Below, one piece after another: positions 3,741 to 62,847 of a DNA stretch of 64,000 nucleotides. The translations under genes were made by a program, and so were the position numbers. The DNA is from Megaustenia siamemsis. Its lineage: Eukaryota > Mollusca > Gastropoda > Stylommatophora > Ariophantidae. The notes under the pieces were generated by a model. The model did no database searches. It saw only the letters and a list, made by a program, of their open reading frames with translations, and was not told the DNA's origin. The stretch's first letter is position 1. Each line of letters opens with the position of its first letter. The stretch lies in the NCBI GenBank assembly GCA_032433765.1, contig JAVIAB010000092.1, positions 99,463,403 through 99,527,402 of the forward strand, written 5' to 3'.

Positions 3741-4629
3741 GAAAGAAATCCGTCATATCAGTTAAACACTATCTTTGTCAATTCTCTGCAACTTAAAGTA
3801 GAAGAGAAGTATTTAGAGCTTAAATAAAGTTTAGAGATTACCTCTAGAAACAAATCACGGTTCAACTCATCATTTTTACTTGGCCCCCAGTCTTGATTTT
3901 CCACATTCACCTTCTGATATCTCCCTATCTACTCCCAGATAAATGATACATTCATGAGGAATGAGAGATTTCAAACACGCAATTTCCCCATCAAGTTACG
4001 ACAGCATTTGACCAAACATTAGATAAGCTCGGAGAAATTGAATCTCTCAAATCGTATGTATAATCTTTATGTCCTTATTGGCACAGCATCTGAATGTTCT
4101 AGTTAAGACATAATATCGTTTATGCAAAGGATTCTGTCTCTCATTTGAGTTTTTTTTTTTCTGAAAGCACGGAAATGTGTCCTTGACCGCGAGGACACTT
4201 GTACACATCCGGTGTTAGCGTTTATCATCACGTGTTCAGATTACGCTTAACTCCAATGAATGATTTGTGAGTCACGTGAGCAAAGAAGCCATAACAATAA
4301 AAATAAAAAAATCTGCCGGAGCAGGCCACAAGCACGTGCCCTGTTAAGCATCGTCGAGCGACACTTATGACTTCTGCCCAGCGCTGTTTGAATCCTCTGC
4401 GAGGCTGACGGGTCGTGTTATGCATATTTGATAACGAGGCCTCCCAATAGAAGCTGCAAGAAGGCCGTTATGTCTGCTTTCCATGATGGAGTCTATTCGT
4501 TTTCAGTGCTAATTGCCAACAAGGTATGGCAAGATAAGGCAGGGCCAAGTTGTCTGCCCATCTTTATGTGTTAATGCTGTTCTTGTCACTGGTGGACAAA
4601 GGGTGGGACAAAGGGTGACCCCATTCTGG

Positions 4630-4660
<31 letters not shown>

Positions 4661-4848
4661 CATGCTGTGGTCACTTTACATAGACCATGCAATGACCGGA
4701 ACATACATATTTAGTTGTTCTTTCTTTCGTTCCGACTTTGTAGTCGTTTGTGAGTGGTAGTGAAATGATTAAAAATTACAATTATAACAAATAAGTAATT
4801 GGTAAGTACTTACTTGGGAGCAAACAGCAATAATAAAATATAACAAAG
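3741..4848. other. No gene seen
   Basis: Presumed intron. AT-rich unique-looking sequence with a (CA)n run at 4632-4652 and a T run near 4151. No exon-like frame. Confidence 0.6.
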
Positions 4849-5108
4849 AGAACTCCTATTGATATAAAAAGAGAAGTAAGACAAGGATGCATCTTATCAC
4901 CAAGCTTGTTCAATCTATACACTGAGCAAATCTTTAAAAACATCTCAGAGATACCAGGCCTAAACATTAATGGAAAGATAATCAATAACCTAAGATATGC
5001 TGATGATACTGTTCTACTAGCAGAAAATCCTAAAGATCTACAACAATTGCTTAATGGAACAAACATGACAAGAAAAACATATGGATTAGATATGAATATC
5101 AAAAGGCT
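4849..5108 (+). pseudogene. LINE reverse-transcriptase fragment (family 1)
   Basis: Open plus-strand frame with RT motifs RQGCILSPSLFNLYTE and LRYADDTVLLAENPKDL (YADD active site), ending at YGLDMNIK. It has no endonuclease, fingers or 3' end. It abuts an oppositely oriented LINE fragment at 5109. Family of APE-type non-LTR elements; the clade (RTE-like or related) is not certain. Confidence 0.8.
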
Positions 5109-6315
5109 AAAATGGACGCCATTCCGCTCTGTCTCTTGCTTTGATGGTGCATTTTTTCACAGGCTGATTTGTCCATCTGTTGATATTACTGGTCCATGTT
5201 AGTTTGGTCTGCCTCTTCCTCTTTGACCTTGTATTTTCCCGTCCACGATTACTTTTAGTAGGCTGTTGTGTCTTTTAACATGCCCCAAGAAACTAATTTG
5301 TCTTGTTTGAACTGTGTTTAATAGTTATCTTTTCATTTTTAATTTTTTTAAGATTTCATCGTTTGTTTCCTTTTCTTTCCATCATATTCTACATATTAAA
5401 AAAAATAAATCCACATTTAAAAGGCGTCAACTTTCTGTTCTGTTTTCTTGTCTAATGCCCATGTTTCTGCACCATACAGGAATGTTGAGAAGACATAACA
5501 TTTTGTTATTCTTAGTTTTAACCATTGTGTTATTTGTTTTGATGTTAGTATATTTTTCAATGCATTAAAATAACTTTTTTGCCATTCCTATTCTTTTGTT
5601 TATTTCAGATGTGATACTTTGTGCGCGCCTCACAGCACCACAGCTGGAAGTTGTCAGCGACCCACAGCTGATGGCTTGCACCAGGATCGGTGAGCCAGAA
5701 TTATCCATACCTTGCTCCACCTCTCCGTGGTGCCTCTAGAAACAGACTAATCTGTCTAGTCTGGCCAAGCGAGTAGGGATCGAAGAGGGAAGACAACCCG
5801 GTACTCAAAAATGTCGTGCTGAATTTTGATGTGTTGGGCCGAAAGGCGCAAATATCACAGTTATATTGCAAACCACAACACAACGCAGACACACCCACTT
5901 AACGTCCTTTTAAGGGCGGATGGTGAAAAGGAATTCTATAGTCTACTAGAATACTTTAGTCATCGGGCGAACACAAGCAAGCAAGTACATTTTCCATCAC
6001 TGGTTATAGTATGCTCGAGGTAGCTGTAGCTCTGAACTGTCTCAAGGTCTCAGATGTATTCCTTCAATTCTGATATCCACTTGTATGTTTTGAGAAATAT
6101 CTTTGTTTATGGTCATAGTTTTAGTGTTGATATTCATACCTAATCCATATTTTTTGCTTGTCATGTTTATTTCATTAAGTAATTGGTGTAGATCTTTAGG
6201 ATTTTATGCTAATGATACAGTATCATCAGCATATCTTAGGTTATTCATTGCTGTTAAGTCTATTTAAACGTTCTTGTATTTCTTCTGTTTTTCTTTGCAT
6301 AAGTGTTGGTAATGT
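5109..6315 (-). pseudogene. LINE 3' half (family 1), interrupted by another repeat
   Basis: Minus-strand copy of the same family as 63261-64000. The 3' coding end is at 5109-5300 and the thumb region at 5300-5610. After the nested repeat it resumes at about 5988-6315, where the YADD region can still be recognised. It has many stops. It overlaps the same protein region as the plus-strand fragment next to it, so these are two separate insertions rather than one inverted copy. Confidence 0.7.
5625..5985. mobile_element. Unclassified interspersed repeat nested in a LINE
   Basis: Shares CTGGAAG(T/C)TGTCAGCGAC, CCACCTCT and CACTTAACGTCCTT with the segment at 52836-53130, in the same order. It splits a minus-strand LINE: LINE sequence stops near 5610 and resumes with ATTTTCCATCACTGG near 5988. 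Without a recognised RNA-derived head I leave it unclassified. Confidence 0.6.
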
Positions 6316-7984
6316 GGAAAGCTATATTGCACTTAATAACGGACACGGGTATGGCCTGGTGAACGTAATTTAAAATAATTTAAAATATATACTACCAGAC
6401 TGCGTGGGCATAAGATATAAAAAAAACAACTCCAGACTGTGTGGGAAGATAGACACGGGGTCAACAAATATTTATGTTATTAACAGACCTGGTGAAGGCG
6501 AGACGCGTAGTCGGGTGACAAGGGAGTGCCATCATAGATATGCATGGACACTCACCCGCAGATCAATCAGTTAGAGGAAAAGTGAATGAGATAGTAAATG
6601 AGCAAAGAAATCAGTGACCAAATTAGTTAGAGACAAGCAGAAAGCAGATGAAAAACCAGCAGAGGAGCTAGAAGTAGATGAGTCACTAACATATACCAAG
6701 GCGGAGCGATTAGAAAAGCTGCCAACTAGTATAGATAAATAAGACGTTAGAACAAGACCGATATTGGATCAAAGTGTATAGACTAATGGATCTAGTTAGT
6801 CCACAACATGACTTGTGTATAGATAGCTAGAAGTGCAATATGCGATGTGTTAATTAATTCTAGGAGTATGTGAGTCAGCGGTCATCCAGACTGCCAGGTA
6901 ACATTATTAGTGGCCATGAAGTTATGTATCGTACATTTAAAATATGGAAATGTACTACTGTGACTGGTGACCAAGGGGCTGTAAAATAGCAGTGGCGTAT
7001 ACTGTTTTTGGGGTCTGGGCTACCGACAAAATAATAAATAAAAACATACATTATATTCAGTGGGCTAACATAAAGTAATATTTTCTAATGACATCACTAC
7101 ATTTTAGATTTCTTATTTATTTGTTAATTATATCCGTCTTTTTTGGGACGAAAATGTCTTTATGACTTTGTCATTCAAAGTACTGTTGGGTTGGTTTCTA
7201 AGTTTCTGAGGGAAATTATTTCTCGATAGACATTAATGCCAAACCAGATAAGCGTCTTGTGTCTGAGTCGCGCGACAATAAGATTTAATTCTCTTGAGAG
7301 CAGAAACAGTTCTTTCTACAGATGCTGATGCGCATAACGTAGTTATAAATAGCTAAGGAAGTTCCGGTAATCAGACATAGTTTCACTTTCACTTTTAACG
7401 CTTCTAATTGGCTAGAGCTAAAAATAACACATGAAACCGCATTCCTCTAGCGGTAGCTCCCATTATATTATTTTGACTCCCATTTTTGAATGTCAAGGTC
7501 GTTAATACTGATAGAGGAAAAATGTACCGCTAGCTACTAGAAGTTTCAATGTAGAGTAGTTTCGGTTTCATTAACAAACGTTATAGTGGCCAGAGGAAAA
7601 CCTTGCTTTAATAAATGCAAACACGAATAATTATATTTTAGTGTTATTGGACACTTCAAACGTTTGTAGATTGTCGTTGTCGAGAGGATGAGATTTGACT
7701 TGAATGTGTTAAAGAGAAAACGATGCGGTCTCAGTTTATGAAGTACGAACGACATAGCGCGGCATTCCATTATATTAAAAGTTGAACGTAACACAGCCAG
7801 CGCCATAATAGGAAGCCAAATCCAGTGTTTAAATATAGTGTCAAGATAACGCACCAAGATCCAAGTAACAAACACAGTGTTACAGTACCTAATCGTCTGC
7901 AAATAGAAACTCGTTAATCACGCCTGTCTCCAATGGGTTGGCTAATTTACATATGTAGTTCATGTAAGTAATAAACAATAGGGG
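6316..7984. other. No gene seen
   Basis: Presumed intron. No recognised element. The 118-codon minus frame at 7546-7902 has no known motif. A G run begins at 7981. The stretch 8166-9350 likewise has only pyrimidine-rich sequence. Confidence 0.55.
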
Positions 7985-17499: not shown

Positions 17500-17860
17500 T
17501 ATATTGTGTTATTTGTATACAGCCGTACAGTTTCAATTTTCCATTTTCCATCATTGGTTATAGTATGTCCCAGGTAGTTGTAGCTCTGGACTGTCTCCAG
17601 ATGTATTCCCTCAACTGTGATATTTAATTGTAGGTCTTGAGAATTTCCTTTGTTTATGATCATAGTTTTAGTCTTTTTGATAATCATATCTAGTCCATAT
17701 TTTTTGCTTGTCATTTTTATTTCATTAAGTAATTGTAGATCTTTAGGATTTTCTGCAAGTAGTACAGTATCGTCAGCATATCTTAGGTTATTGATTATAT
17801 TTCCATTAATGTGTAGGCCTGGCATCTCTATGATGTTTTTAAAGATTTACTCAGTGTGTA
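17500..17860 (-). pseudogene. LINE reverse-transcriptase fragment (family 1)
   Basis: Minus strand: MPGLHINGNIINNLRYADDT, LLAENPKDL, GLDMIIKKTKTMIINKG and YNYLGHTITNDGK. It is broken at both ends. Its upstream end meets a plus-strand RNase H fragment of another LINE at about 17870. Lies in the 26-kb intron, about 280 bp from the 17221 acceptor. Confidence 0.78.
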
Positions 17861-17877
17861 GATTGTTTTTGTACAAC

Positions 17878-18420
17878 AGTTATAAAAATAGGTACAGCGA
17901 GCTAGATGACCTAAGAACAACCATAGAGCAATTATGCAATAACTTTCAGAGAGTGATCATCCAGTGGATACCATCACACTGTTATATACCAGGAAACGAA
18001 TGCGCTGACAAACTAATAGGTAAGGAGAAAGGGAGATTACCACGCTACGATGAAGCCAAATCCATCATCAAAGGCCAGCATCATGAACAATTGAAACAAG
18101 AACACTCAAAGTATAACGAGAGGGATGGATACCTCCGACTATTAAGGAGGGATCATGTCATCATACTTCACCTACGCACTGGCCACAACACATTGAGAAA
18201 GAACATGTTCACAAAACTCAAAATATGAACTACCAGCCAAAATGCTACTAGAAAACATGGCAACAAAACATGTTCAACAGGATTGCTCCCAGTACACAGG
18301 CTTGAAGTCGACGTTGTGGCCCATACTCATCTTCCTGGAAGAGAAACTCTACGGGGCAACCGAATCACTGAAACAGATAGTTGTCTTCACAAGAAAGTCC
18401 AGAGTCCTAGTCTGAATAAG
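17878..18420 (+). pseudogene. I/Jockey-like LINE RNase H fragment (family 5)
   Basis: Plus strand: ELDDLRTTIEQLCNNFQ, IIQWIPSHCYIPGNECADKL (the last RNase H block with its His and Asp), then LRTGHNTLRKNMFTKLKI, typical of the region after RNase H in I/Jockey-type elements. It is truncated 5' at the junction with the minus-strand LINE at 17870, and 3' it loses frame. Confidence 0.72.
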
Positions 18421-32589: not shown

Positions 32590-33112
32590 ATGGGACAGGA
32601 CATATGTAGAATTGTCGTGACACCATACATTTCTCGTTCAACCAGAATGGGGCAGGACATAATTATAATTCTCTCTACACCAGAATAGGACAGGACATAT
32701 GTAGAATTCTCGTCACACCAGAATAAGACACGACATATGTAGAATTCTCGTCCAATCAGAATAAGACTTGACATATGTAGAAGTCTCGCCCAGCCCATAT
32801 AAGAGATGGCATATGTAGAATTCTCGTCAAGCAGAATACAACATGACATATGTAGAAGTCTCGCCCAGCCCATATAAGAGATGGCATATGTAGAATTCTC
32901 GTCAAGCAGAATACAACATGACATATGTAGAATTCTCCTCCAACCAGAATAAGACATGACATATGTAGAATTCTCTTCCAACCAGAATAAGACATGACAA
33001 ACGTAGAATTCTCGTCCAAACAGAATAAAACATGACATATGTAGAACTCTACTTCAATCAGAATAAAACATGACATATGTAGAATTCTCCTCAAACCAGA
33101 ATAAAACATGAC
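32590..33112. repeat. ~38-bp minisatellite left of the palindrome
   Basis: Degenerate units around ACATATGTAGAATTCTCG. They have the same orientation as the array at 41599-42775, so the two are one array split by the 8.5-kb element. Sequence from 32350 to 32590 is a looser relative containing AACCAGAATGGGA-type segments. Confidence 0.88.
33107..33112. repeat. Target-site duplication, left (CATGAC)
   Basis: The six bases preceding the left terminus are repeated directly at 41599-41604. Caution: CATGAC is also part of every unit of the host 38-bp array. The array phase resumes correctly if one copy is removed, as expected for a simple insertion. Confidence 0.7.
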
Positions 33113-33640
33113 AGTAGTATACAATGTTCCAACTGGTCATTATTGTGGCGCTAAATTAACAAAGATATATAGGGCGGCGCGCGGCGCACCTTTCGCGCGA
33201 AATGTACACGAAAGACAAGGGGAGTTAACCATGACCGCGCGTGTCCGGATGTTGACCTCTAGTCCCGGTGACCCCGGAAGTGACCTGTTTATGTTTGGTG
33301 TGTGCTAACTTTGGAGTTCTTTATGTACTTGATCGTTAGTGCTAGGTTACTAGATTATATAACATCTAGGAAAAACGAGCAATATAAAACAGAAGACAAA
33401 ATATATATTTTATACTTTTATTAGCTCAATAGGTGTATAACATACATTGATATTATATATCATTACAAACATAGTCAGTACATTGAGTAAATATATAGCA
33501 CAAGTATAACAATTATTTATAGCTATGTAGTTGGGTGTCAGCTTAACGTTGTACCATAAATGAAGCATAAGGGTGAAACAGTTAGAGATTACTGGTTAGT
33601 CTAAGCTGGTAGTGTAAATATGTTCCTCGGTGTTAGTGGT
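33113..33640. repeat. Terminal tip of left arm (TIR) of the palindromic element
   Basis: The tip runs AGTAGTATACAATGTTCC, then a CpG-rich block near 33171-33202 that includes the perfect 12-bp palindrome TTTCGCGCGAAA (33191-33202), and then AT-rich sequence. It is matched by the inverted tip at the right end. One small cluster of differences (CTGGTCAT versus GTGATCAT) lies about 20 bp from the end. No coding frame is recognised. Confidence 0.8.
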
Positions 33641-33643
33641 TCG

Positions 33644-33691
<48 letters not shown>

Positions 33692-34060
33692 ACTATTCCT
33701 GCCTAGATTTCCCTCCATTGAAACACTTACTCATTCTCTCCATTTATCCCTATCATCGCGCCTTCCTTCTCTCTCTCTCTCTCTCTTTCGCCCCTATCCT
33801 CTCTTAGACTTCTAACCTATCAGTCCACCCTCCTCCTCTCCCTTTAGCTCCCCCGCCCGCCCTCATATTTTTAGCGTCCATCCTATTGTAACACTTGATT
33901 ATTCTCACCATTAATACATAGCATCTCACCTTCTTTCTCATAGGCTTCTCTCTCTCGCTCTCTCTCTCTCTCTCTCGCTCTTCTAACCCCGACTAGACTT
34001 CTCTCCTACCATTCCACCTTTCTTCCTCTCTCTCTCTCTCTCTCTTTACCTCGCCTAGCG
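33640..34060. repeat. Pyrimidine-rich (CT)n stretches, left arm
   Basis: Several (CT)n runs with interruptions, inside the left arm. The inverted (GA)n version is at 40660-41065. From 34060 to 34455 the arm is AT-rich with nothing recognised. Confidence 0.85.
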
Positions 34061-34454
34061 TTCCGCCTTCATTCGTATTTTTACCTTACCACCAGTGTAA
34101 CACATTAATAACATTGAATATCAATTACAAAAAGACTTGAAATATTTACTTTTTAAAGAACCAATAAGATAAACATATGAAAAACGAAGGAATAATACAC
34201 TCGACAAGGCTTAACAGACGTACTTTATACACATCACCATTAATACAACTGAAATTCCTTTAATGATAACCTATCACATCGTTATGAGCTAAGAGAAAAA
34301 CAGAAAAAAAAAATTCAACTTACACCGTAAAATATTCCACTACAACACAGACCGCTAGACTGAACAGTACTATGAAAATAAACGGCCGTGAATCAAGCGC
34401 GCTTATAACACGAAGTCTCACATCCGACTAGTTTAAATATAATCTGGTAAATAA

Positions 34455-34955
34455 AAGTTAGGAGACAAGGGCAGAAACCTAGGAGGCAAGGGCAGAAACC
34501 TAGGAGGCAAGGACAGAAACCTAGGAGGCAAGGACAGAAACCTAGGAGGTAAGGGCAGAAACCTAAGAGGCAAGGGTAGAAACCTAAGAGGCAAAGACAG
34601 AAACCTAGGAGGCAAGGGCAGAAACCTAGGAGGCAAGGACAGAAAACTAGGAAGCAAAGGCTGAAAACAAGGAGGGAAGATCAGAAATCTAGGAAGCTGT
34701 GTTAGAAAACAAGGAGGGAAGGTCAGAAACCTAGGAGGCAAGGTCAGAAACCTAGGAGGCAAGGTCAGAAACCTATGAGGCAAGGTCAGAAACCTAGGAG
34801 GCAAAGGCAGAAACCAAAGAGGCAAGGGCAGAAACCTAGGAGGCAAGATCAGAAACCTAGGAGGCAATGTCAGAAACCTAGGAGGCAAGGGCAGAAACCA
34901 AAGACACAAAGGCAGAAACCAAAGAGGCAAGGGCAGAAACCTAGGAGGCACCTCG
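34455..34955. repeat. 21-bp minisatellite in left arm
   Basis: About 24 copies of a unit close to AAACCTAGGAGGCAAGGGCA plus one base. Unit length is a multiple of 3, so both strands stay open (172 codons on the minus strand, proline/leucine/phenylalanine-rich). There is no sign of a real protein. At least one substitution separates it from the right-arm array (TATGAGG versus TAGGAGG near 34773). Confidence 0.9.
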
Positions 34956-35309
34956 ATGGACAGCTAGACAACGGAAGAAGCAGAGATTATCATTGTAAAC
35001 TTTAGAATGGGAATCGGTTTGAAGGATATTATTACCTTGATTTGATGCAATGTAGTGTGGGATATCTAGCAGACACCCTATAGGATAATCTTGAAGTTTA
35101 TAAACATAAACACTCGTACTGACTAAGGCTTCCAAGGTGTATTTGGTTGTATCCCTATTTTTGTCTGTATAACCTAATATATCACTTTCATTTAATCTAT
35201 CGATATACGTTTCAAAGTCATTTCTGTTGTTAACTAACAAGGGTTTGTCTAACCCTGTCGCGTTATTTGAGCTTGCGTGAAAGTAACGCAGCCCCTGTGT
35301 ATAGGCCAA
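34941..35309 (-). pseudogene. Type-B DNA polymerase-like N-terminal fragment, left arm
   Basis: A 122-codon open fragment reads outward toward the left terminus. Features seen: YFHASSNNATGLDKPLL near the start, KYTLEALVSTSVYVYKL in the middle, PIGCLLDIPHYIASN, and YNDNLCFFRCLAVHRG at the end. After that it runs straight into a 21-bp minisatellite and stops. From memory, this order of motifs resembles the N-terminal region of protein-primed polymerase B proteins of invertebrate Maverick/Polinton elements. The polymerase catalytic domain is absent, and a stop lies just upstream of the first codons. It cannot encode an active enzyme. It is identical at protein level to the right-arm copy. Confidence 0.6.
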
Positions 35310-35319
35310 ATCGCAAACA

Positions 35320-36985
35320 TTTTACCCCAGAACACAAAAAATTTAGGCTCATACTCAAAATGTCGATCCCAAAACCATAAAAATCTACTCCCATACTCAT
35401 ACTAGTTAGACACATCGAACAGATAGTTACATCCAAAGTCCCAAATAGTTAGGCCAAATCACTAACATTTTACCCACAGAACACAAAAATATAGGCTCAT
35501 ACGCAAAAAATCGACCTCAACACCCTAAAAAGGTACTCACATAGTCATACTAGTTAGACACATTGAACAGATAGTTACAGCCAAAGTCCCAAACAGAGTG
35601 GCCATATCACTAACATTTTACCTCCAGAACACAAAAATTTAGGCTCATACTAAAAAAGTCGACCTAAAAATCCAGAAAAAGCTACTCACATAGTCATAAT
35701 AGTTAGACACATCGAACAGATAGTTACATCCAAAGGCCCAAATAGTTAGGCCAAATCACTAACATTTTACCCACAGAACACAAAAATATAGGCTCATACG
35801 CAAAAAATCGACCTCAACACCCTAAAAAGGTACTCACATAGTCATACTAGTTAGACACATCGAACAGATAGTTACAGCCAAAGTCCCAAACAGAGTGGCC
35901 ATATCACTAACATTTTACCTCCAGAACACAAAAATTTAGGCTCATACTAAAAAAGTCGATCCCAAAACCAGAAAAAGCTACTCACATAGTCATAATAGTT
36001 AGACACATCGAACAGATAGTTGCATCCAAAGTCCCAAATAGTTAGGCCAAATCACTAACATTTTACCCACAGAACACAAAAATATAGGCTCATACGCAAA
36101 AAATCGACCTCAACACCCTAAAAAGGTACTCACATAGTCATACTAGTTAGACACATCGAACAGATAGTTACAGCCAAAGTCCCAAACAGAGTGGCCATAT
36201 CACTAACATTTTACCTCCAGAACACAAAAATTTAGGCTCATACTAAAAAAGTCGATCCCAAAACCAGAAAAAGCTACTCACATAGTCATAATAGTTAGAC
36301 ACATCGAACAGATAGTTGCATCCAAAGTCCCAAATAGTTAGGCCAAATCACTAACATTTTACCCACAGAACACAAAAATATAGGCTCATACGCAAAAAAT
36401 CGACCTCAACACCCTAAAAAGGTACTCACATAGTCATACTAGTTAGACACATCGAACAGATAGTTACAGCCAAAGTCCCAAACAGAGTGGCCATATCACT
36501 AACATTTTACCTCCAGAACACAAAAATTTAGGCTCATACTAAAAAAGTCGACCTAAAAATCCAGAAAAAGCTACTCACATAGTCATAATAGTTAGACACA
36601 ACGAGTCGAAAGTTATATTCAAGCGACCTCAACACCATAAAAAAGGTACTCACATAGTCATACTAGTTAGACACATCGAACAGATAGTTACATCCAAAAG
36701 TCCAAATCACTAACATTTTACCTCCAGAAACAAAAATTTAGGCTCATACTAAAAAAGTCGACCTATAAACCATAAAAATCTACTCACATAGTCATACTAG
36801 TTAGACACATCGAACAGATAGTTACAGCCAAAGGCCCAAACAGAGTGGCCATATCACTAACATTTTACCTCCATAACACAAAAATTTAGGCTCATACTAA
36901 AAAAGTCGACCTAAAAATCCAGAAAAAGCTACTCACATAGTCATAATAGTTAGACACAACGAGTCGAAAGTTATATTCAAGGTCC
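35320..36985. repeat. Dimeric ~296-bp higher-order satellite, left arm
   Basis: Direct copies recur with starts near 35451, 35748, 36044 and 36340, so the period is 296-297 bp. Each unit is made of two related ~148-bp monomers. One monomer contains CACAGAACACAAAAATATAG and the other CTCCAGAACACAAAAATTTA. The array is AT-rich with no coding frame. Its inner edge has degraded and rearranged units (36600-36985). Confidence 0.9.
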
Positions 36986-36989
36986 AAAA

Positions 36990-37670
36990 AAAAAACCGTT
37001 ATTTTAGACATCCTCATTGCAAAAATTTACATAAAAAACCACTTTTAGGATTTTACCCCCTTAGCATTTTTGAGGGTTACGCCCATTAAATCGGTAAAAA
37101 AATCGTAATTTTAGCACGTAGGCTTACCTAAAACTTTATTTTAGACATCCCCACACCAAAAATTTACTTAAAAATCACTTTTGAGATTGTTACCCCCTTA
37201 CCATTTTTTAGGGTTACGCCCATGGAATCGATAAAAATCGTAAATTTAGCACATAGGCTTACCTAAAACTTTATTTTAGACATCCCCATTGCAAAAATTT
37301 ACATTAAAAACCACTTTTAGGATTTTACCCCCTTATCATTTTTTGAGGGTTACGCCCATAGAATTGATAAAAATCGTAAATTTAACACGTAGGCTTACCT
37401 AAAACTTTATTTTAGACATCCCCACACCAAAAATTTACTTAAAAAGCACTTTTGAAATTGTAACCCCCCTTACCATTTTTGAGGGTTACGCCCCTGAAAT
37501 CGATAAAAATCGTTAATTTAGCACGTAGGCTTACCTAAAACTTTATTTTAGACATCCCCACACCAAAAATTTACTTAAAAATCACTTTTGAAATTGTTAC
37601 CCCCCTTAAAATTTTTTAGGGTTACGCCCCTGAAAGCGATAAAAAATTGAAATATAACCTCAAGGCATAC
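36990..37670. repeat. 136-bp satellite, left arm
   Basis: Five copies at a spacing of 136-137 bp, marked by GGGTTACGCCC at about 37074, 37211, 37347, 37483 and 37619. Each unit has runs of C and A and the motif CTAAAACTTTATTTTAGACA. No frame is open. Confidence 0.9.
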
Positions 37671-37753
37671 CTCCCACATAATTTTTGACACCCCTACATA
37701 TCAAATTCCAACAAAAAAACAACAAAAAGCTAGTAGTAGCGGTGGCTGTGAAC

Positions 37754-37849
37754 TCAACAGAAAAGTGGAATAACATGCACCGAAATACAATAGATTTGGC
37801 ACTGAAACTGTTTCGGTGCCAAAACATGCACGAGAAGTAGTATGTTAGG
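37754..37849. other. Central spacer of the palindrome with internal hairpin
   Basis: Ninety-six bases not shared by the arms. Bases 37796-37822 form their own hairpin: TTGGCACTGAAAC and GTTTCGGTGCCAA pair at 12 of 13 positions with a single-base loop. The arm edges on each side read GTGGCTGTGAAC and GTTCACAGCCAC. Confidence 0.85.
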
Positions 37850-37929
37850 GTTCACAGCCACCGCTACTACTAGCTTTTTGTTGTTTTTTTGTTGGAATTT
37901 GATATGTAGGGGTGTCAAAAATTATGTGG

Positions 37930-38612
37930 GAGGTATGCCTTGAGGTTATATTTCAATTTTTTATCGCTTTCAGGGGCGTAACCCTAAAAAATTTTAAGGG
38001 GGGTAACAATTTCAAAAGTGATTTTTAAGTAAATTTTTGGTGTGGGGATGTCTAAAATAAAGTTTTAGGTAAGCCTACGTGCTAAATTAACGATTTTTAT
38101 CGATTTCAGGGGCGTAACCCTCAAAAATGGTAAGGGGGTTACAATTTCAAAAGTGCTTTTTAAGTAAATTTTTGGTGTGGGGATGTCTAAAATAAAGTTT
38201 TAGGTAAGCCTACGTGTTAAATTTACGATTTTTATCAATTCTATGGGCGTAACCCTCAAAAAATGATAAGGGGGTAAAATCCTAAAAGTGGTTTTTAATG
38301 TAAATTTTTGCAATGGGGATGTCTAAAATAAAGTTTTAGGTAAGACTATGTGCTAAATTTACGATTTTTATCGATTCCATGGGCGTAACCCTAAAAAATG
38401 GTAAGGGGGTAACAATCTCAAAAGTGATTTTTAAGTAAATTTTTGGTGTGGGGATGTCTAAAATAAAGTTTTAGGTAAGCCTACGTGCTAAAATTACGAT
38501 TTTTTTACCGATTTAATGGGCGTAACCCTCAAAAATGCTAAGGGGGTAAAATCCTAAAAGTGGTTTTTTATGTAAATTTTTGCAATGAGGATGTCTAAAA
38601 TAACGGTTTTTT
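37930..38612. repeat. 136-bp satellite, right arm
   Basis: Inverted copy of the five-unit array. It differs from the left arm by isolated changes, such as TAAGACTATG near 38341 where the left arm predicts TAAGCCTATG, and by homopolymer lengths. Confidence 0.9.
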
Positions 38613-38619
38613 TTTTGGA

Positions 38620-39400
38620 CCTTGAATATAACTTTCGACTCGTTGTGTCTAACTATTATGACTATGTGAGTAGCTTTTTCTGGATTTTTAGATCGACTTT
38701 TTTAGTATGAGCCTAAATTTTTGTGTTATGGAGGTAAAATGTTAGTGATATGGCCACTCTGTTTGGGCCTTTGGCTGTAACTATCTGTTCGATGTGTCTA
38801 ACTAGTATGACTATGTGAGTAGATTTTTATGGTTTATAGGTCGACTTTTTTAGTATGAGCCTAAATTTTTGTTTCTGGAGGTAAAATGTTAGTGATTTGG
38901 GCTTTTGGATGTAACTATCTGTTCGATGTGTCTAACTAGTATGACTATGTGAGTACCTTTTTTATGGTGTTGAGGTCGCTTGAATATAACTTTCGACTCG
39001 TTGTGTCTAACTATTATGACTATGTGAGTAGCTTTTTCTGGATTTTTAGGTCGACTTTTTTAGTATGAGCCTAAATTTTTGTGTTCTGGAGGTAAAATGT
39101 TAGTGATATGGCCACTCTGTTTGGGACTTTGGCTGTAACTATCTGTTTGATGTGTCTAACTAGTATGACTATGTGAGTACCTTTTTAGGGTGTTGAGGTC
39201 GATTTTTTGCGTATGAGCCTATATTTTTGTGTTCTGTGGGTAAAATGTTAGTGATTTGGCCTAACTATTTGGGACTTTGGATGTAACTATCTGTTCGATG
39301 TGTCTAACTAGTATGAGTATGGGAGTAGATTTTTATGGTTTTGGGATCGACATTTTGAGTATGAGCCTAAATTTTTTGTGTTCTGGGGGTAAAATGTTTG
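38620..39400. repeat. Dimeric ~296-bp higher-order satellite, right arm
   Basis: Inverted counterpart of the left-arm array but only about 780 bp long against about 1670 bp. The difference matches three 296-bp higher-order units, so copy number changed after the two arms formed. Confidence 0.9.
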
Positions 39401-39404
39401 CGAT

Positions 39405-39773
39405 TTGGCCTATACACAGGGGCTGCGTTACTTTCACGCAAGCTCAAATAACGCGACAGGGTTAGACAAACCCTTGTTAGTTAACAACAGAAATGACTTT
39501 GAAACGTATATCGATAGATTAAATGAAAGTGATATATTAGGTTATACAGACAAAAATAGGGATACAACCAAATACACCTTGGAAGCCTTAGTCAGTACGA
39601 GTGTTTATGTTTATAAACTTCAAGATTATCCTATAGGGTGTCTGCTAGATATCCCACACTACATTGCATCAAATCAAGGTAATAATATCCTTCAAACCGA
39701 TTCCCATTCTAAAGTTTACAATGATAATCTCTGCTTCTTCCGTTGTCTAGCTGTCCATCGAGGTGCCTCCTAG
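39405..39773 (+). pseudogene. Type-B DNA polymerase-like N-terminal fragment, right arm
   Basis: Inverted twin of the left-arm fragment, with the same 122 residues. It reads outward toward the right end and ends at the same junction with the 21-bp minisatellite. The shared junction shows the polymerase gene was already truncated before the arms became inverted copies, or that one arm has been copied onto the other. Confidence 0.6.
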
Positions 39774-40255
39774 GTTTCTGCCCTTGCCTCTTTGGTTTCT
39801 GCCTTTGTGTCTTTGGTTTCTGCCCTTGCCTCCTAGGTTTCTGACATTGCCTCCTAGGTTTCTGATCTTGCCTCCTAGGTTTCTGCCCTTGCCTCTTTGG
39901 TTTCTGCCTTTGCCTCCTAGGTTTCTGACCTTGCCTCCTAGGTTTCTGACCTTGCCTCCTAGGTTTCTGACCTTGCCTCCTAGGTTTCTGACCTTCCCTC
40001 CTTGTTTTCTAACACAGCTTCCTAGATTTCTGATCTTCCCTCCTTGTTTTCAGCCTTTGCTTCCTAGTTTTCTGTCCTTGCCTCCTAGGTTTCTGCCCTT
40101 GCCTCCTAGGTTTCTGTCTTTGCCTCTTAGGTTTCTACCCTTGCCTCTTAGGTTTCTGCCCTTACCTCCTAGGTTTCTGTCCTTGCCTCCTAGGTTTCTG
40201 TCCTTGCCTCCTAGGTTTCTGCCCTTGCCTCCTAGGTTTCTGCCCTTGTCTCCTA
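39763..40255. repeat. 21-bp minisatellite in right arm
   Basis: Inverted counterpart of the left-arm 21-bp array, with the same order of unit variants. The 172-codon open frame is a by-product of the 21-bp period. Confidence 0.9.
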
Positions 40256-40659
40256 ACTTTTATTTACCAGATTATATTTAAACTAGTCGGATGTGAGACT
40301 TCGTGTTATAAGCGCGCTTGATTCACGGCCGTTTATTTTCATAGTACTGTTCAGTCTAGCGGTCTGTGTTGTAGTGGAATATTTTACGGTGTAAGTTGAA
40401 TTTTTTTTTCTGTTTTTCTCTTAGCTCATAACGATGTGATAGGTTATCATTAAAGGAATTTCAGTTGTATTAATGGTGATGTGTATAAAGTACGTCTGTT
40501 AAGCCTTGTCGAGTGTATTATTCCTTCGTTTTTCATATGTTTATCTTATTGGTTCTTTAAAAAGTAAATATTTCAAGTCTTTTTGTAATTGATATTCAAT
40601 GTTATTAATGTGTTACACTGGTGGTAAGGTAAAAATACGAATGAAGGCGGAACGCTAGG

Positions 40660-41021
40660 CGAGGTAAAGAGAGAGAGAGAGAGAGAGGAAGAAAGGTGGA
40701 ATGGTAGGAGAGAAGTCTAGTCGGGGTTAGAAGAGCGAGAGAGAGAGAGAGAGAGCGAGAGAGAGAAGCCTATGAGAAAGAAGGTGAGATGCTATGTATT
40801 AATGGTGAGAATAATCAAGTGTTACAATAGGATGGACGCTAAAAATATGAGGGCGGGCGGGGGAGCTAAAGGGAGAGGAGGAGGGTGGACTGATAGGTTA
40901 GAAGTCTAAGAGAGGATAGGGGCGAAAGAGAGAGAGAGAGAGAGAAGGAAGGCGCGATGATAGGGATAAATGGAGAGAATGAGTAAGTGTTTCAATGGAG
41001 GGAAATCTAGGCAGGAATAGT

Positions 41022-41065
<44 letters not shown>
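40660..41065. repeat. Purine-rich (GA)n stretches, right arm
   Basis: Inverted counterpart of 33640-34060, with different run lengths. The 40255-40660 segment is the AT-rich inverted copy of 34060-34455 and holds nothing recognised. Confidence 0.85.
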
Positions 41066-41067
<2 letters not shown>

Positions 41068-41069
41068 CG

Positions 41070-41598
41070 AACCACTAACACCGAGGAACATATTTACACT
41101 ACCAGCTTAGACTAACCAGTAATCTCTAACTGTTTCACCCTTATGCTTCATTTATGGTACAACGTTAAGCTGACACCCAACTACATAGCTATAAATAATT
41201 GTTATACTTGTGCTATATATTTACTCAATGTACTGACTATGTTTGTAATGATATATAATATCAATGTATGTTATACACCTATTGAGCTAATAAAAGTATA
41301 AAATATATATTTTGTCTTCTGTTTTATATTGCTCGTTTTTCCTAGATGTTATATAATCTAGTAACCTAGCACTAACGATCAAGTACATAAAGAACTCCAA
41401 AGTTAGCACACACCAAACATAAACAGGTCACTTCCGGGGTCACCGGGACTAGAGGTCAACATCCGGACACGCGCGGTCATGGTTAACTCCCCTTGTCTTT
41501 CGTGTACATTTCGCGCGAAAGGTGCGCCGCGCGCCGCCCTATATATCTTTGTTAATTTAGCGCCACAATAATGATCACTTGGAACATTGTATACTACT
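41070..41598. repeat. Terminal tip of right arm (TIR) of the palindromic element
   Basis: Inverted copy of the left tip. It ends ...GTATACTACT at 41598 and is followed by CATGAC. The palindrome TTTCGCGCGAAA lies at 41509-41520, exactly symmetric to the left one about the element midpoint. Confidence 0.8.
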
Positions 41599-41604
41599 CA
41601 TGAC
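41599..41604. repeat. Target-site duplication, right (CATGAC)
   Basis: Direct copy of 33107-33112, immediately after the right terminus ...GTATACTACT. Confidence 0.7.
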
Positions 41605-61477: not shown

Positions 61478-62847
61478 TGTACATATATATGGGGCAGACA
61501 GCAATATTTTGAAAAAGACTATACGTAGGAAGAGTCAGACCAGTACTAGAGTATGGAGTCACAGCCTGGGCTATGGCTTCCAAATCACACTTTAGTAAAA
61601 TTAACAGAACACAGAACCGAGCTGCTCGTATTATCACTGGTGCTATGTAATCTACACCTATCAATACTCTAGAAACAGTAACAAGTTTACAACCCTTAGA
61701 TGACAGACGGGTCACTAAAGTATCGCAACAAGCGGAGAAATATAGAAGGCTCCTTAGCTAACCCATGCACCAAGGAATATCTGGTTCCGGAATTGTACGA
61801 CTAAAGAGGAGCAACTTCCCTGCAATTGCCAATGAACTAACTACTGGAGACCCAGTACTTTCCCAAACAATATCGAAATCCTTGGGCCCATCTGATATGT
61901 CTCCTCATGGAAAGCATAAAATACCAGAACTTAAGGAAAATATAACAGGAATCATGAAAAAAGCACTCAATCAGACACAGAAAGAAAACACGTAGCAGAA
62001 AAACACATACGCGATACCTACCCACAGGACTCTTGGTCACACATATACACAGATGGCTCTGCTACAAATGCCACCAGAAATGGAGGGGGAGGGGTGTGTA
62101 CTTGATGCTGAATAATCAGGACGAGATCACCAAGTCAATAGCTACTGGAAAATTCTCAAACAGCTTTAAAGCAGAAACTAAGGCCATCAGAGATGCTGCA
62201 ACACTGGCTACTCAACACAAAAATAACATGCACAATAAATTGGTGATTCTGACTGATGCTCTGTCAGTACTATCAGCTCTAAAAAGCCACAAGAGCAATG
62301 AACTAGATGACTTGAGAACAACCCTGGACCAATTATGCAATAACTTCCAGAGTAGTCATTCAGTGGATACCATCACACTGTAATATACACGGGAACGAAC
62401 GCGCAGACAAATTAGCTAAAGAGGGAGGGAGAATACCACAAGAGAACCATCCGCTCAGTTGTGATGAAGCCAAATCCATCCTCAAGGGTCAGTTCCATGA
62501 AAAATGGAAACGAGAACACCCAAAGCATAACGAGAGTGACGGATACCATCAACTATCAAGGAGGGATCAAGTCATCATACTTCGCCTACGCACTGGCCAC
62601 AATAGAATGAGAAATCACATGTTCACCAAATTCAAAATAGGTACAACCAGCCTATGCCACTGTACACTGGACAATATGACTATAAAACATGTTCTACAGG
62701 ATTGCCCCCAGTATACAGACCTGAGAAGAGCAATGTGGTCCACGCCCACCTCCCTGGAATAAAAACTATATGGGGCAATCGATTCGCTTAAACAGACAGC
62801 TGACTTAATGAGAGAGTCTGGAATCCCACTCTGATTGAGTCTTGATC

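What the first reader, a model, noticed from the sequence alone, without database searches (positions are those of the whole stretch)
33113..41598. 8.5-kb fold-back Maverick/Polinton derivative: an element that is nearly all terminal inverted repeat
Seen: two arms of 4641 and 3749 bp, inverted and nearly identical, with 96 bp between them. The ends begin 5'-AGTAGTATAC with CATGAC duplicated on both flanks. Known: 6-bp duplications and 5'-AG ends are Maverick/Polinton hallmarks, and the fragment in each arm resembles Maverick polymerase B. Inference: a non-autonomous palindromic Maverick lineage, comparable to fold-back elements or giant MITEs but derived from a protein-primed, virus-like transposon. 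I do not know of this form being described.
Basis: partly seen in the sequence, partly recalled or inferred. Interest (0 to 1): 0.88.

Follow-up and report, generated by a model that had tools for sequence, protein, structure and literature searches.

The report
Palindromic Maverick satellites with hairpin ends
The 8.5-kb stretch is one of many mirror-image derivatives, without complete genes, of a virus-like transposon (a Maverick) in one animal-like genome, apparently made when one end of a shorter element folds back and is copied into its own mirror image.

Summary
The palindrome is real and Maverick-derived: AGTAGT…ACTACT ends, 6-bp duplication CATGAC, arms 99.8% identical apart from an 889-nt tandem-array difference. 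Its tip has 4157 first-look candidates in the same 2.59-Gb genome; the 40 scored mark 26 insertions, 22 judged palindromic. All 18 insertions read at both ends have 6-bp duplications (one duplicated site, counted twice, after an extra ACT). The polymerase-like fragment is 85% identical to part of a PolB locus that ends in the same tip. New: two insertions are monomers, with this tip, one arm, then the opposite Maverick terminus, a 140-nt hairpin (z −10.5). The palindromes are what results if the monomer's 3' end snaps back on this hairpin and is copied to the far tip. Arms differ by 0.15% (median) within elements and 2.8% between; the hairpin stem, which snap-back would not recopy, differs by about 4%. 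A reciprocal family is mirrored around the other end. I read them as satellite Mavericks maintained by fold-back replication. No intact helper with these tips was found, replication was not observed, and no long reads were available.

The parts
33107..33112 (.). Left target-site duplication CATGAC
41599..41604 (.). Right target-site duplication CATGAC
33113..37753 (+). Left arm, 4641 bp
37850..41598 (-). Right arm, 3749 bp; with the centre it corresponds to the monomer form, 37732-41598 (inference)
   Evidence: compared with monomers
33113..33633 (+). PolB-side (P) terminus AGTAGTATACAATG...; used as genome query
41079..41598 (-). Same P terminus at the right end
34459..34950 (.). 21-bp tandem array, left arm
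39764..40255 (.). 21-bp tandem array, right arm
34941..35309 (-). Truncated 122-aa frame from the N-terminal part of a Maverick-type PolB, reading toward the left tip
39405..39773 (+). Same PolB fragment in the right arm, reading toward the right tip
35301..36604 (.). 148/296-bp tandem array, left arm (8.8 units of 148)
38998..39410 (.). 148-bp tandem array, right arm (2.8 units); the arms' length difference lies here
36999..37645 (.). 136-bp tandem array, left arm
37958..38603 (.). 136-bp tandem array, right arm
37732..37805 (+). Integrase-side (I) Maverick terminus kept at the centre (AGTAGTAGCGGTGGCTGTGAACTCAACAG...). The I-type palindrome L066 and the C1 monomer share a 74-bp exact prefix of this sequence type; the window copy differs from them at a few bases
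37754..37849 (.). 96-bp centre: loop of the proposed snap-back, with its own small hairpin
37850..37871 (-). Inner 22-bp inverted copy of the I end, identical here to the outer one; proposed site on which the 3' end primes

Best explanation
The window holds a non-autonomous (satellite) Maverick/Polinton in head-to-head dimer form. Shown: a monomer form exists, with the PolB-side terminus at one end and the opposite (integrase-side) terminus at the other; that second terminus is a ~140-nt terminal hairpin; the dimers read as that monomer plus a reverse-complement copy of its arm, starting right after the last nucleotide of the hairpin; both forms sit between 6-bp target duplications. Inferred: during replication a displaced single strand of the monomer folds its 3' end back on the inner 22-bp copy, self-primes and is copied to the far end, which yields a palindrome with two PolB-side tips. 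A Maverick integrase supplied in trans then inserts it. Protein priming at the AGTAGT tip and hairpin priming at the other end would together make a cycle in which one arm is repeatedly recopied from the other, keeping the arms identical. The helper that supplies polymerase and integrase was not identified.
For: (1) Membership. Ends AGTAGT/ACTACT and 6-bp duplications: 12 of 14 tip-paired elements have the duplication directly adjacent; the other two are one duplicated insertion with an extra ACT before GTAGAT. (2) PolB. The fragment is 84.9% identical over 119 aa (E 6.5e-69) to a frame about 1 kb upstream of a DNA_pol_B_2 match (30.1 bits, cut-off 25.8) at C124:38.12 Mb, and that copy ends in the same tip (84% over 347 bases, 92% over 87, then TATACTACT). 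That frame's region has 14 database relatives at 27-39% identity, none named. (3) Monomers. C1:55494129 (CACACC on both sides) and C137:103223143 (CATAGT on both sides) end ...GTTCACAGCCACC(TA or GC)TACTACT after one arm. (4) Exact junction. Where read, palindromes continue ...CTACT|AGCTTTTTG, the reverse complement of what precedes the inner copy (L035 reads AGCTTTTGTG). (5) Hairpin. The C1 monomer's 140-nt end pairs all 22 terminal bases; z -10.5, 0 of 200 shuffles as stable. (6) Concerted arms. Within-element median 0.15% against between-element 2.79%; own partner strictly nearest for 21 of 26 arms, 1 tie; 0 of 10000 permutations as low; left-left and left-right distances equal (13 distinct elements, L039 dropped as a duplicate). 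(7) Arms recopied, stem not. In 16 distinct palindromes where both 22-bp stem copies can be read, I count 15 differences in 352 positions (~4%), with 7 of the 16 identical (four read by eye). Snap-back extends from the stem, so it recopies arms, not stem. (8) Reciprocal family. L066 is an 8.6-kb palindrome of the opposite end, CACGTC on both sides, tip sharing a 74-bp exact prefix with the C1 monomer's end; 57 of 57 close pairs of its fragment face inward, 61 of 61 of the PolB fragment face outward.
Against: No replication intermediate, terminal protein or helper with these tips was seen. The C124 PolB is split over several frames. Only two clear monomers were found among 26 insertions, so the direction monomer to dimer rests on the anatomy; about 1 kb of the C137 monomer's interior was not read. 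The stem is not always a perfect match: 9 of 16 distinct palindromes have 1-4 differences between inner and outer copy, and the C137 monomer has one. One such difference (A/G at position 7) is shared by seven elements of several tip types, which could mean that dimers are inherited as dimers. The I-type palindrome turns around at a different place (117-bp centre), so the terminal-hairpin argument fits the window's family, not that one. Four of 26 arms are nearer to another element's arm than to their own partner (L038, L042 to L040). The integrase naming of the 54-aa fragment is recalled; Pfam and NCBIfam gave nothing.
Confidence: 0.68

Rival explanations
1. Copy-back by polymerase template switching on a linear protein-primed genome, as for adenovirus defective genomes with mirrored ends (recalled), without hairpin self-priming. 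The palindrome formed once and was then amplified as such; arms stay identical because the displaced strand folds into one long duplex in which mismatches are repaired.
For: Fits the homologous centre in 12 of 14 tip-paired elements, the stem difference shared by seven elements of several tip types, and the reciprocal family with another turning point. Concerted arms would follow from pairing within the strand.
Against: It does not by itself explain why the turning point is exactly the last nucleotide of a terminal hairpin that free monomers also carry, nor why repair would spare the stem (~4% different) while holding the arms at 0.2%.
Confidence: 0.2
2. The arms are kept alike by gene conversion between the two chromosomal arms after insertion, as in Y-chromosome palindromes (recalled); the element itself replicates conventionally.
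For: Within-element identity is what conversion would also give.
Against: Array-length differences between arms persist (889 nt here; roughly 150-450 nt in L032, L035, L036, L040, L043). A SINE-like insert in one arm of L033 and a LINE piece at the centre-arm edge of L037 are not copied to the other arm. The stem next to the arms is less alike than the arms.
Confidence: 0.1
3. Assembly or library artefact (fold-back chimeric reads).
For: Large palindromes are a known artefact class (recalled).
Against: 14 of 14 tip-paired copies have two host flanks with a shared duplication, and 12 of 14 share one centre type; arms differ by indels; nested LINE and SINE-like inserts sit on one side only.
Confidence: 0.02

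Closest known systems
Maverick/Polinton (vertebrate set, PMC8097293)
   Same: (AGT)2//(ACT)2 ends, 6-bp target duplications, two different termini, a PolB relative with the same tip in the genome.
   Different: Published intact elements are 12.7-24.6 kb with TIRs of 46-1447 bp (section 7). Here the element is ~8.5 kb, the inverted repeat spans all but the centre, and no complete gene was seen.
Adenovirus defective genomes with mirrored ends (recalled)
   Same: Protein-primed linear DNA (inferred here), palindromes built from one end or the other.
   Different: Those are particle-associated molecules; these are inserted in a host genome, highly repeated, with target duplications, and one monomer end has a long terminal hairpin.
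Parvovirus rolling-hairpin replication (recalled)
   Same: ~140-nt terminal hairpin and head-to-head dimers.
   Different: No Rep/NS1-sized frame; ends and duplications are those of a Maverick; hairpin at only one end of the monomer.
Bidnaviridae (PMC4061559, abstract and passages seen)
   Same: A replicon with Polinton-derived PolB and terminal inverted repeats.
   Different: A passage states that bidnavirus terminal repeats do not form the hairpins characteristic of parvoviruses; bidnaviruses are viruses, not inserted satellites.
Foldback transposons such as Tm1 (PMC3169594; search listing and abstract start only) and Drosophila FB (recalled)
   Same: Very long inverted repeats with internal tandem arrays (recalled).
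   Different: Listed as Mutator/Foldback; ends and duplications here are Maverick-type and the arms hold PolB sequence.

Membership tests
Maverick/Polinton | 6-bp target-site duplication | tested here: met
   12 of 14 tip-paired elements directly adjacent, the other 2 (one duplicated insertion) after an extra ACT; also 2 of 2 monomers, L047 and L066
Maverick/Polinton | Conserved end motif, (AGT)2//(ACT)2 being the commonest in vertebrates | tested here: met
   against PMC8097293
Maverick/Polinton | Family B polymerase of the protein-primed kind | tested here: met
   Only as a fragment and by kinship: 84.9% over 119 aa to the C124 locus that has PF03175 above cut-off and the same tip. The fragment alone matches no Pfam, PHROG or NCBIfam model above noise
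Maverick/Polinton | Retroviral-type integrase | tested here: inconclusive
   A 54-aa piece resembling an integrase C-terminal region (recalled) occurs in the reciprocal family; Pfam and NCBIfam gave no match; not seen in the window element
Maverick/Polinton | Capsid, ATPase and protease genes | not tested
   Frames in the window element are short and were not searched for these; helper loci were not searched for them either
Maverick/Polinton | Protein-primed replication of linear DNA | not testable with these tools
   No replication intermediate can be seen in an assembly
Parvovirus-like rolling hairpin | Terminal hairpin able to prime | tested here: inconclusive
   Structure present on the C1 monomer end (z -10.5); priming itself not observed
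Parvovirus-like rolling hairpin | Rep/NS1 nickase gene | tested here: not met
   Longest frames inside the element are 172 aa of tandem repeat and the 122-aa PolB piece; judged by size, no profile search for Rep. Only similarity of mechanism is claimed
Foldback (FB) transposon, Mutator-like | 9-10-bp target duplications (recalled) | tested here: not met
   6-bp duplications, AGTAGT ends, PolB remnant

The most novel reading that the evidence does not exclude
These satellites live by a hybrid cycle that I found described for no transposon: protein-primed initiation at one Maverick end and hairpin self-priming at the other, so that monomers and mirror dimers interconvert and each new insertion carries two fresh copies of a single arm. 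A similar process at the opposite end has produced a second palindromic family in the same genome.
Probability: 0.4. Interest if true: 0.9.

Novelty: new variant of a known kind. Interest (0 to 1): 0.78.

Why it matters
How Mavericks replicate outside the chromosome is largely inferred. A family in which the insertion record itself preserves monomers, mirror dimers, a terminal hairpin and arm-to-arm recopying makes a single-stranded, fold-back stage testable from genomes alone. It also suggests that Maverick satellites can be numerous where polymerase genes are few: 12 DNA_pol_B_2 matches at about 6 loci (91 of 466 candidates scored, introns ignored), against 4177 first-look candidates for the fragment, 150 scored, all matching. 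It gives a natural parallel to the mirrored defective genomes of adenoviruses (recalled), and adds a source of long chromosomal palindromes.

Tried and rejected
PolB fragment against Pfam, PHROGs, PDB and NCBIfam: no match above noise. Fragment against 5.8 billion proteins: no candidate; full-length polymerases are outside the tool's length limit. Fragment against viral contigs and phages: none. A degenerate peptide pattern in viral contigs: 0. A 20-base tip in viral contigs: one hit, L001; beyond the 20 bases nothing convincing matches, so I treat it as chance. PolB loci on C137, C154, C100, C87 and C125: no match to the fragment in the stretches fetched. I first took the C1 copy for a truncated solo arm; its second end with the same target duplication showed that it is a monomer. 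I first read three-AGT ends in L040 and L015 as slippage; both are explained by a target duplication ending in AGT, which leaves only L038/L039 (one insertion) as a possible jump-back trace. A crude alignment gave 11% arm difference for L043; that was misalignment round a ~420-nt length difference, and the region alignment gives at most 0.46% for any element. Considered and rejected: assembly artefact; ordinary MITE; Mutator-type foldback. The genome-wide count of monomer ends by pattern did not complete, so the monomer-to-dimer ratio rests on 26 insertions.
Full report
Observation. The inverted repeat is as described. The arms are 33113-37753 and 37850-41598 with 96 bp between them; 3741 of 3748 aligned bases match, and the length difference is mostly an 889-nt gap in a 148-bp tandem array. 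The ends read CATGAC|AGTAGTATAC and GTATACTACT|CATGAC. The insertion sits inside a 38-bp minisatellite and its flanks stay in phase once the 6 bp are counted as a target duplication.

It is a repeat family. The first 521 bases of the element gave 4157 first-look candidates in the window's own 2.59-Gb assembly. Forty were scored and all forty match full length at 92% or more. They form 14 inverted pairs spanning 6.7-9.5 kb, including the window, plus 12 unpaired tips. I fetched the 13 other pairs. All 14 elements are palindromic. Twelve carry a 6-bp duplication directly adjacent to the ends; two are the same insertion present twice, with an extra ACT before its duplication GTAGAT. Eleven of the 14 give 99.3-99.95% arm identity by simple half-splitting. 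The other three have local causes: a LINE piece in L037 and a SINE-like insert in L033, and L044, a shorter derivative (6.75 kb) that lacks most of the centre. The centre is homologous in 12 of 14; L036 and L044 keep only part of it.

The 12 unpaired tips. Two are monomers (C1 and C137). One (L047) is a palindrome that lost most of one arm but kept its duplication GTCGAC. Two, both on C105, are composites: one ends in an integrase-side terminus at tip +9.7 kb followed by a run of N, and for the other I saw only 2.5 kb of the interior. Seven run through the centre, one of them with a damaged centre, into element-like sequence that I take for the second arm; their far tips were not read. So I judge 22 of 26 insertions palindromic, 2 monomers and 2 composite. 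Palindromes have two such tips and monomers one, so this sample favours palindromes.

Why Maverick. The ends match the (AGT)2//(ACT)2 motif reported as commonest in vertebrate Mavericks, with 6-bp duplications (PMC8097293: section 7 read, other passages seen). The 122-aa fragment in each arm has no family match of its own. The genome gave 12 DNA_pol_B_2 matches at about six loci (91 of 466 candidates scored). One of these, C124:38.12 Mb, holds the fragment's relative at 84.9% identity, about 1 kb upstream of the polymerase match. The stretches fetched at the other five loci do not. Downstream of that polymerase lies the element's tip (84% over 347 bases, 92% over 87), ending TATACTACT; its other end was not read. 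The polymerase runs toward the tip, as the fragment does in the arms. That locus is split over several frames. The C137 polymerase has a long open frame but belongs to another lineage; whether it could help these elements is unknown. The fragment itself has 4177 candidates; 150 were scored, all at 94-99% identity. They give 61 outward-facing pairs within 10 kb, no close pair of another orientation, and 28 unpaired.

The monomer. The C1 copy starts CACACC|AGTAGTATACAATG and ends GTTCACAGCCACCTATACTACT|CACACC after one arm and the centre sequence. The C137 copy does the same with duplication CATAGT and a GC instead of a TA; about 1 kb of its interior was not read. The last 140 nt of the C1 monomer form a hairpin pairing all 22 terminal bases, at -38.9 kcal/mol against -11.05 for shuffles (z -10.5, 0 of 200). 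In the palindromes the outer repeat is followed at once by AGCTTTTTG (AGCTTTTGTG in L035), the reverse complement of what lies before the inner repeat. The dimer is therefore the monomer plus a copy of its arm, starting after the terminal nucleotide. In the window the kept terminus is 37732-37805 and the inner copy 37850-37871.

The other end. The monomer's second end is a real terminus of this kind of element, because it is also the tip of a second palindromic family. L066 is 8.6 kb with tips AGTAGTATAGGTGGCTGTGAAC, duplication CACGTC on both sides, and arms 99.5% identical. Its tip shares an exact 74-bp prefix with the C1 monomer's end. This family carries a 54-aa piece that I recall as resembling the C-terminal region of Maverick integrases; no profile confirmed it. 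That piece has 2324 candidates; of 150 scored, all at 98% or more, there are 57 inward-facing pairs, no close pair of another orientation, and 36 unpaired. Only one such element was read in full. Its centre differs (a 117-bp loop), so the terminal-hairpin argument applies to the window's family, not to this one.

Concerted arms. Over the tip region (about 1.3-1.7 kb) of 13 distinct elements (L039 dropped as a duplicate of L038) the arms differ by a median of 0.15% (maximum 0.46%) within elements and 2.79% (maximum 7.86%) between them. The own partner is strictly nearest for 21 of 26 arms, with 1 tie and 4 arms nearer to L040; no permutation of 10000 was as low. Left-left and left-right distances are equal, 3.93% and 3.94%. 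The tree agrees for 10 of 13 elements; three near-identical ones are unresolved. A palindrome copied faithfully since a single origin would instead give a left clade and a right clade.

The stem. Rechecking the 22-bp stem copies changed a statement in my draft. Among 16 distinct palindromes where both copies can be read, 7 have identical copies, including mirrored changes relative to the window (GTA/GTA in L032, GAT/GAT in L042), and 9 differ at 1-4 places. That is 15 differences in 352 positions, counted by me, four elements by eye. The C1 monomer's copies are identical; the C137 monomer's differ at one place. One A/G difference is shared by seven elements of several tip types. So the stem is about twenty times less alike than the arms. 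This fits snap-back, which extends from the stem and so recopies the arm but not the stem. It fits less well with repair or conversion of the whole palindrome. The shared difference could equally mean that some dimers are inherited as dimers or that monomers carry it.

Mechanism. A passage in PMC4061559 says that polintoviruses have been suggested to replicate through a single-stranded intermediate by protein priming. A displaced strand of the monomer would expose the hairpin, whose 3' end can prime copying to the far tip. That yields the dimer and makes one arm the template of the other. Shown: the monomers, the hairpin, the junction, the target duplications, the concerted arms with less-alike stems, and the reciprocal family. 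Inferred: priming in vivo, the order monomer to dimer, and enzymes supplied in trans. The main rival is template switching with later amplification; gene conversion after insertion is weakened by array-length differences, one-sided inserts and the stem.

Novelty. Judging by the listed titles and abstract starts, none returned a paper on palindromic Mavericks. I also saw passages of PMC6431247. Subscription papers and Repbase entries were not searched. Each ingredient is known; the combination, its scale and the preserved monomer-dimer series are what seem new.

Limits. Only the best-scoring hits are reported by the genome search, so candidate numbers are not verified copy counts. No long reads or orthologous sites were available.

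Noticed in passing
window 17641-18228 and 62316-62762: Frames with RNase H-like LINE motifs (recalled), pieces of LINE retrotransposons.
   Followed up: no
window 1-64000: The window is rich in minisatellites: 71 tandem-repeat rows (some describing the same array), several with 20-60-bp units and dozens of copies.
   Followed up: no
L038 and L039 (C51:133.17 Mb and C51:132.57 Mb): The same insertion with the same close flanks occurs twice about 600 kb apart; hits of the integrase-like piece at C51:132.08 and 132.68 Mb show the same offset, suggesting a recent segmental duplication or an uncollapsed haplotype.
   Followed up: partly
L037 element positions 4698-6741: A LINE piece with an open 673-aa frame (reverse transcriptase and RNase H-like, recalled) inserted at the centre of a palindrome; useful for relative dating.
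   Followed up: partly
L033 element positions 4586-4959: A ~373-bp SINE-like insert in one arm only, not copied to the other arm.
   Followed up: partly
L035, L036, L037, L043: A subfamily with a distinct tip-region branch in which the PolB fragment was not found, although three of the four keep the shared centre.
   Followed up: partly
G000 C105:31707849 (L048, L058) and C105:31190987 (L057): Composite elements joining the PolB-side arm to the inverted structure of the integrase-side family; the first is followed by a run of N.
   Followed up: partly
L059 (C137:9133900-9137300): A different PolB lineage with a long open frame (889 aa within L059, 1025 aa reported), without a match to the window fragment.
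   Followed up: no
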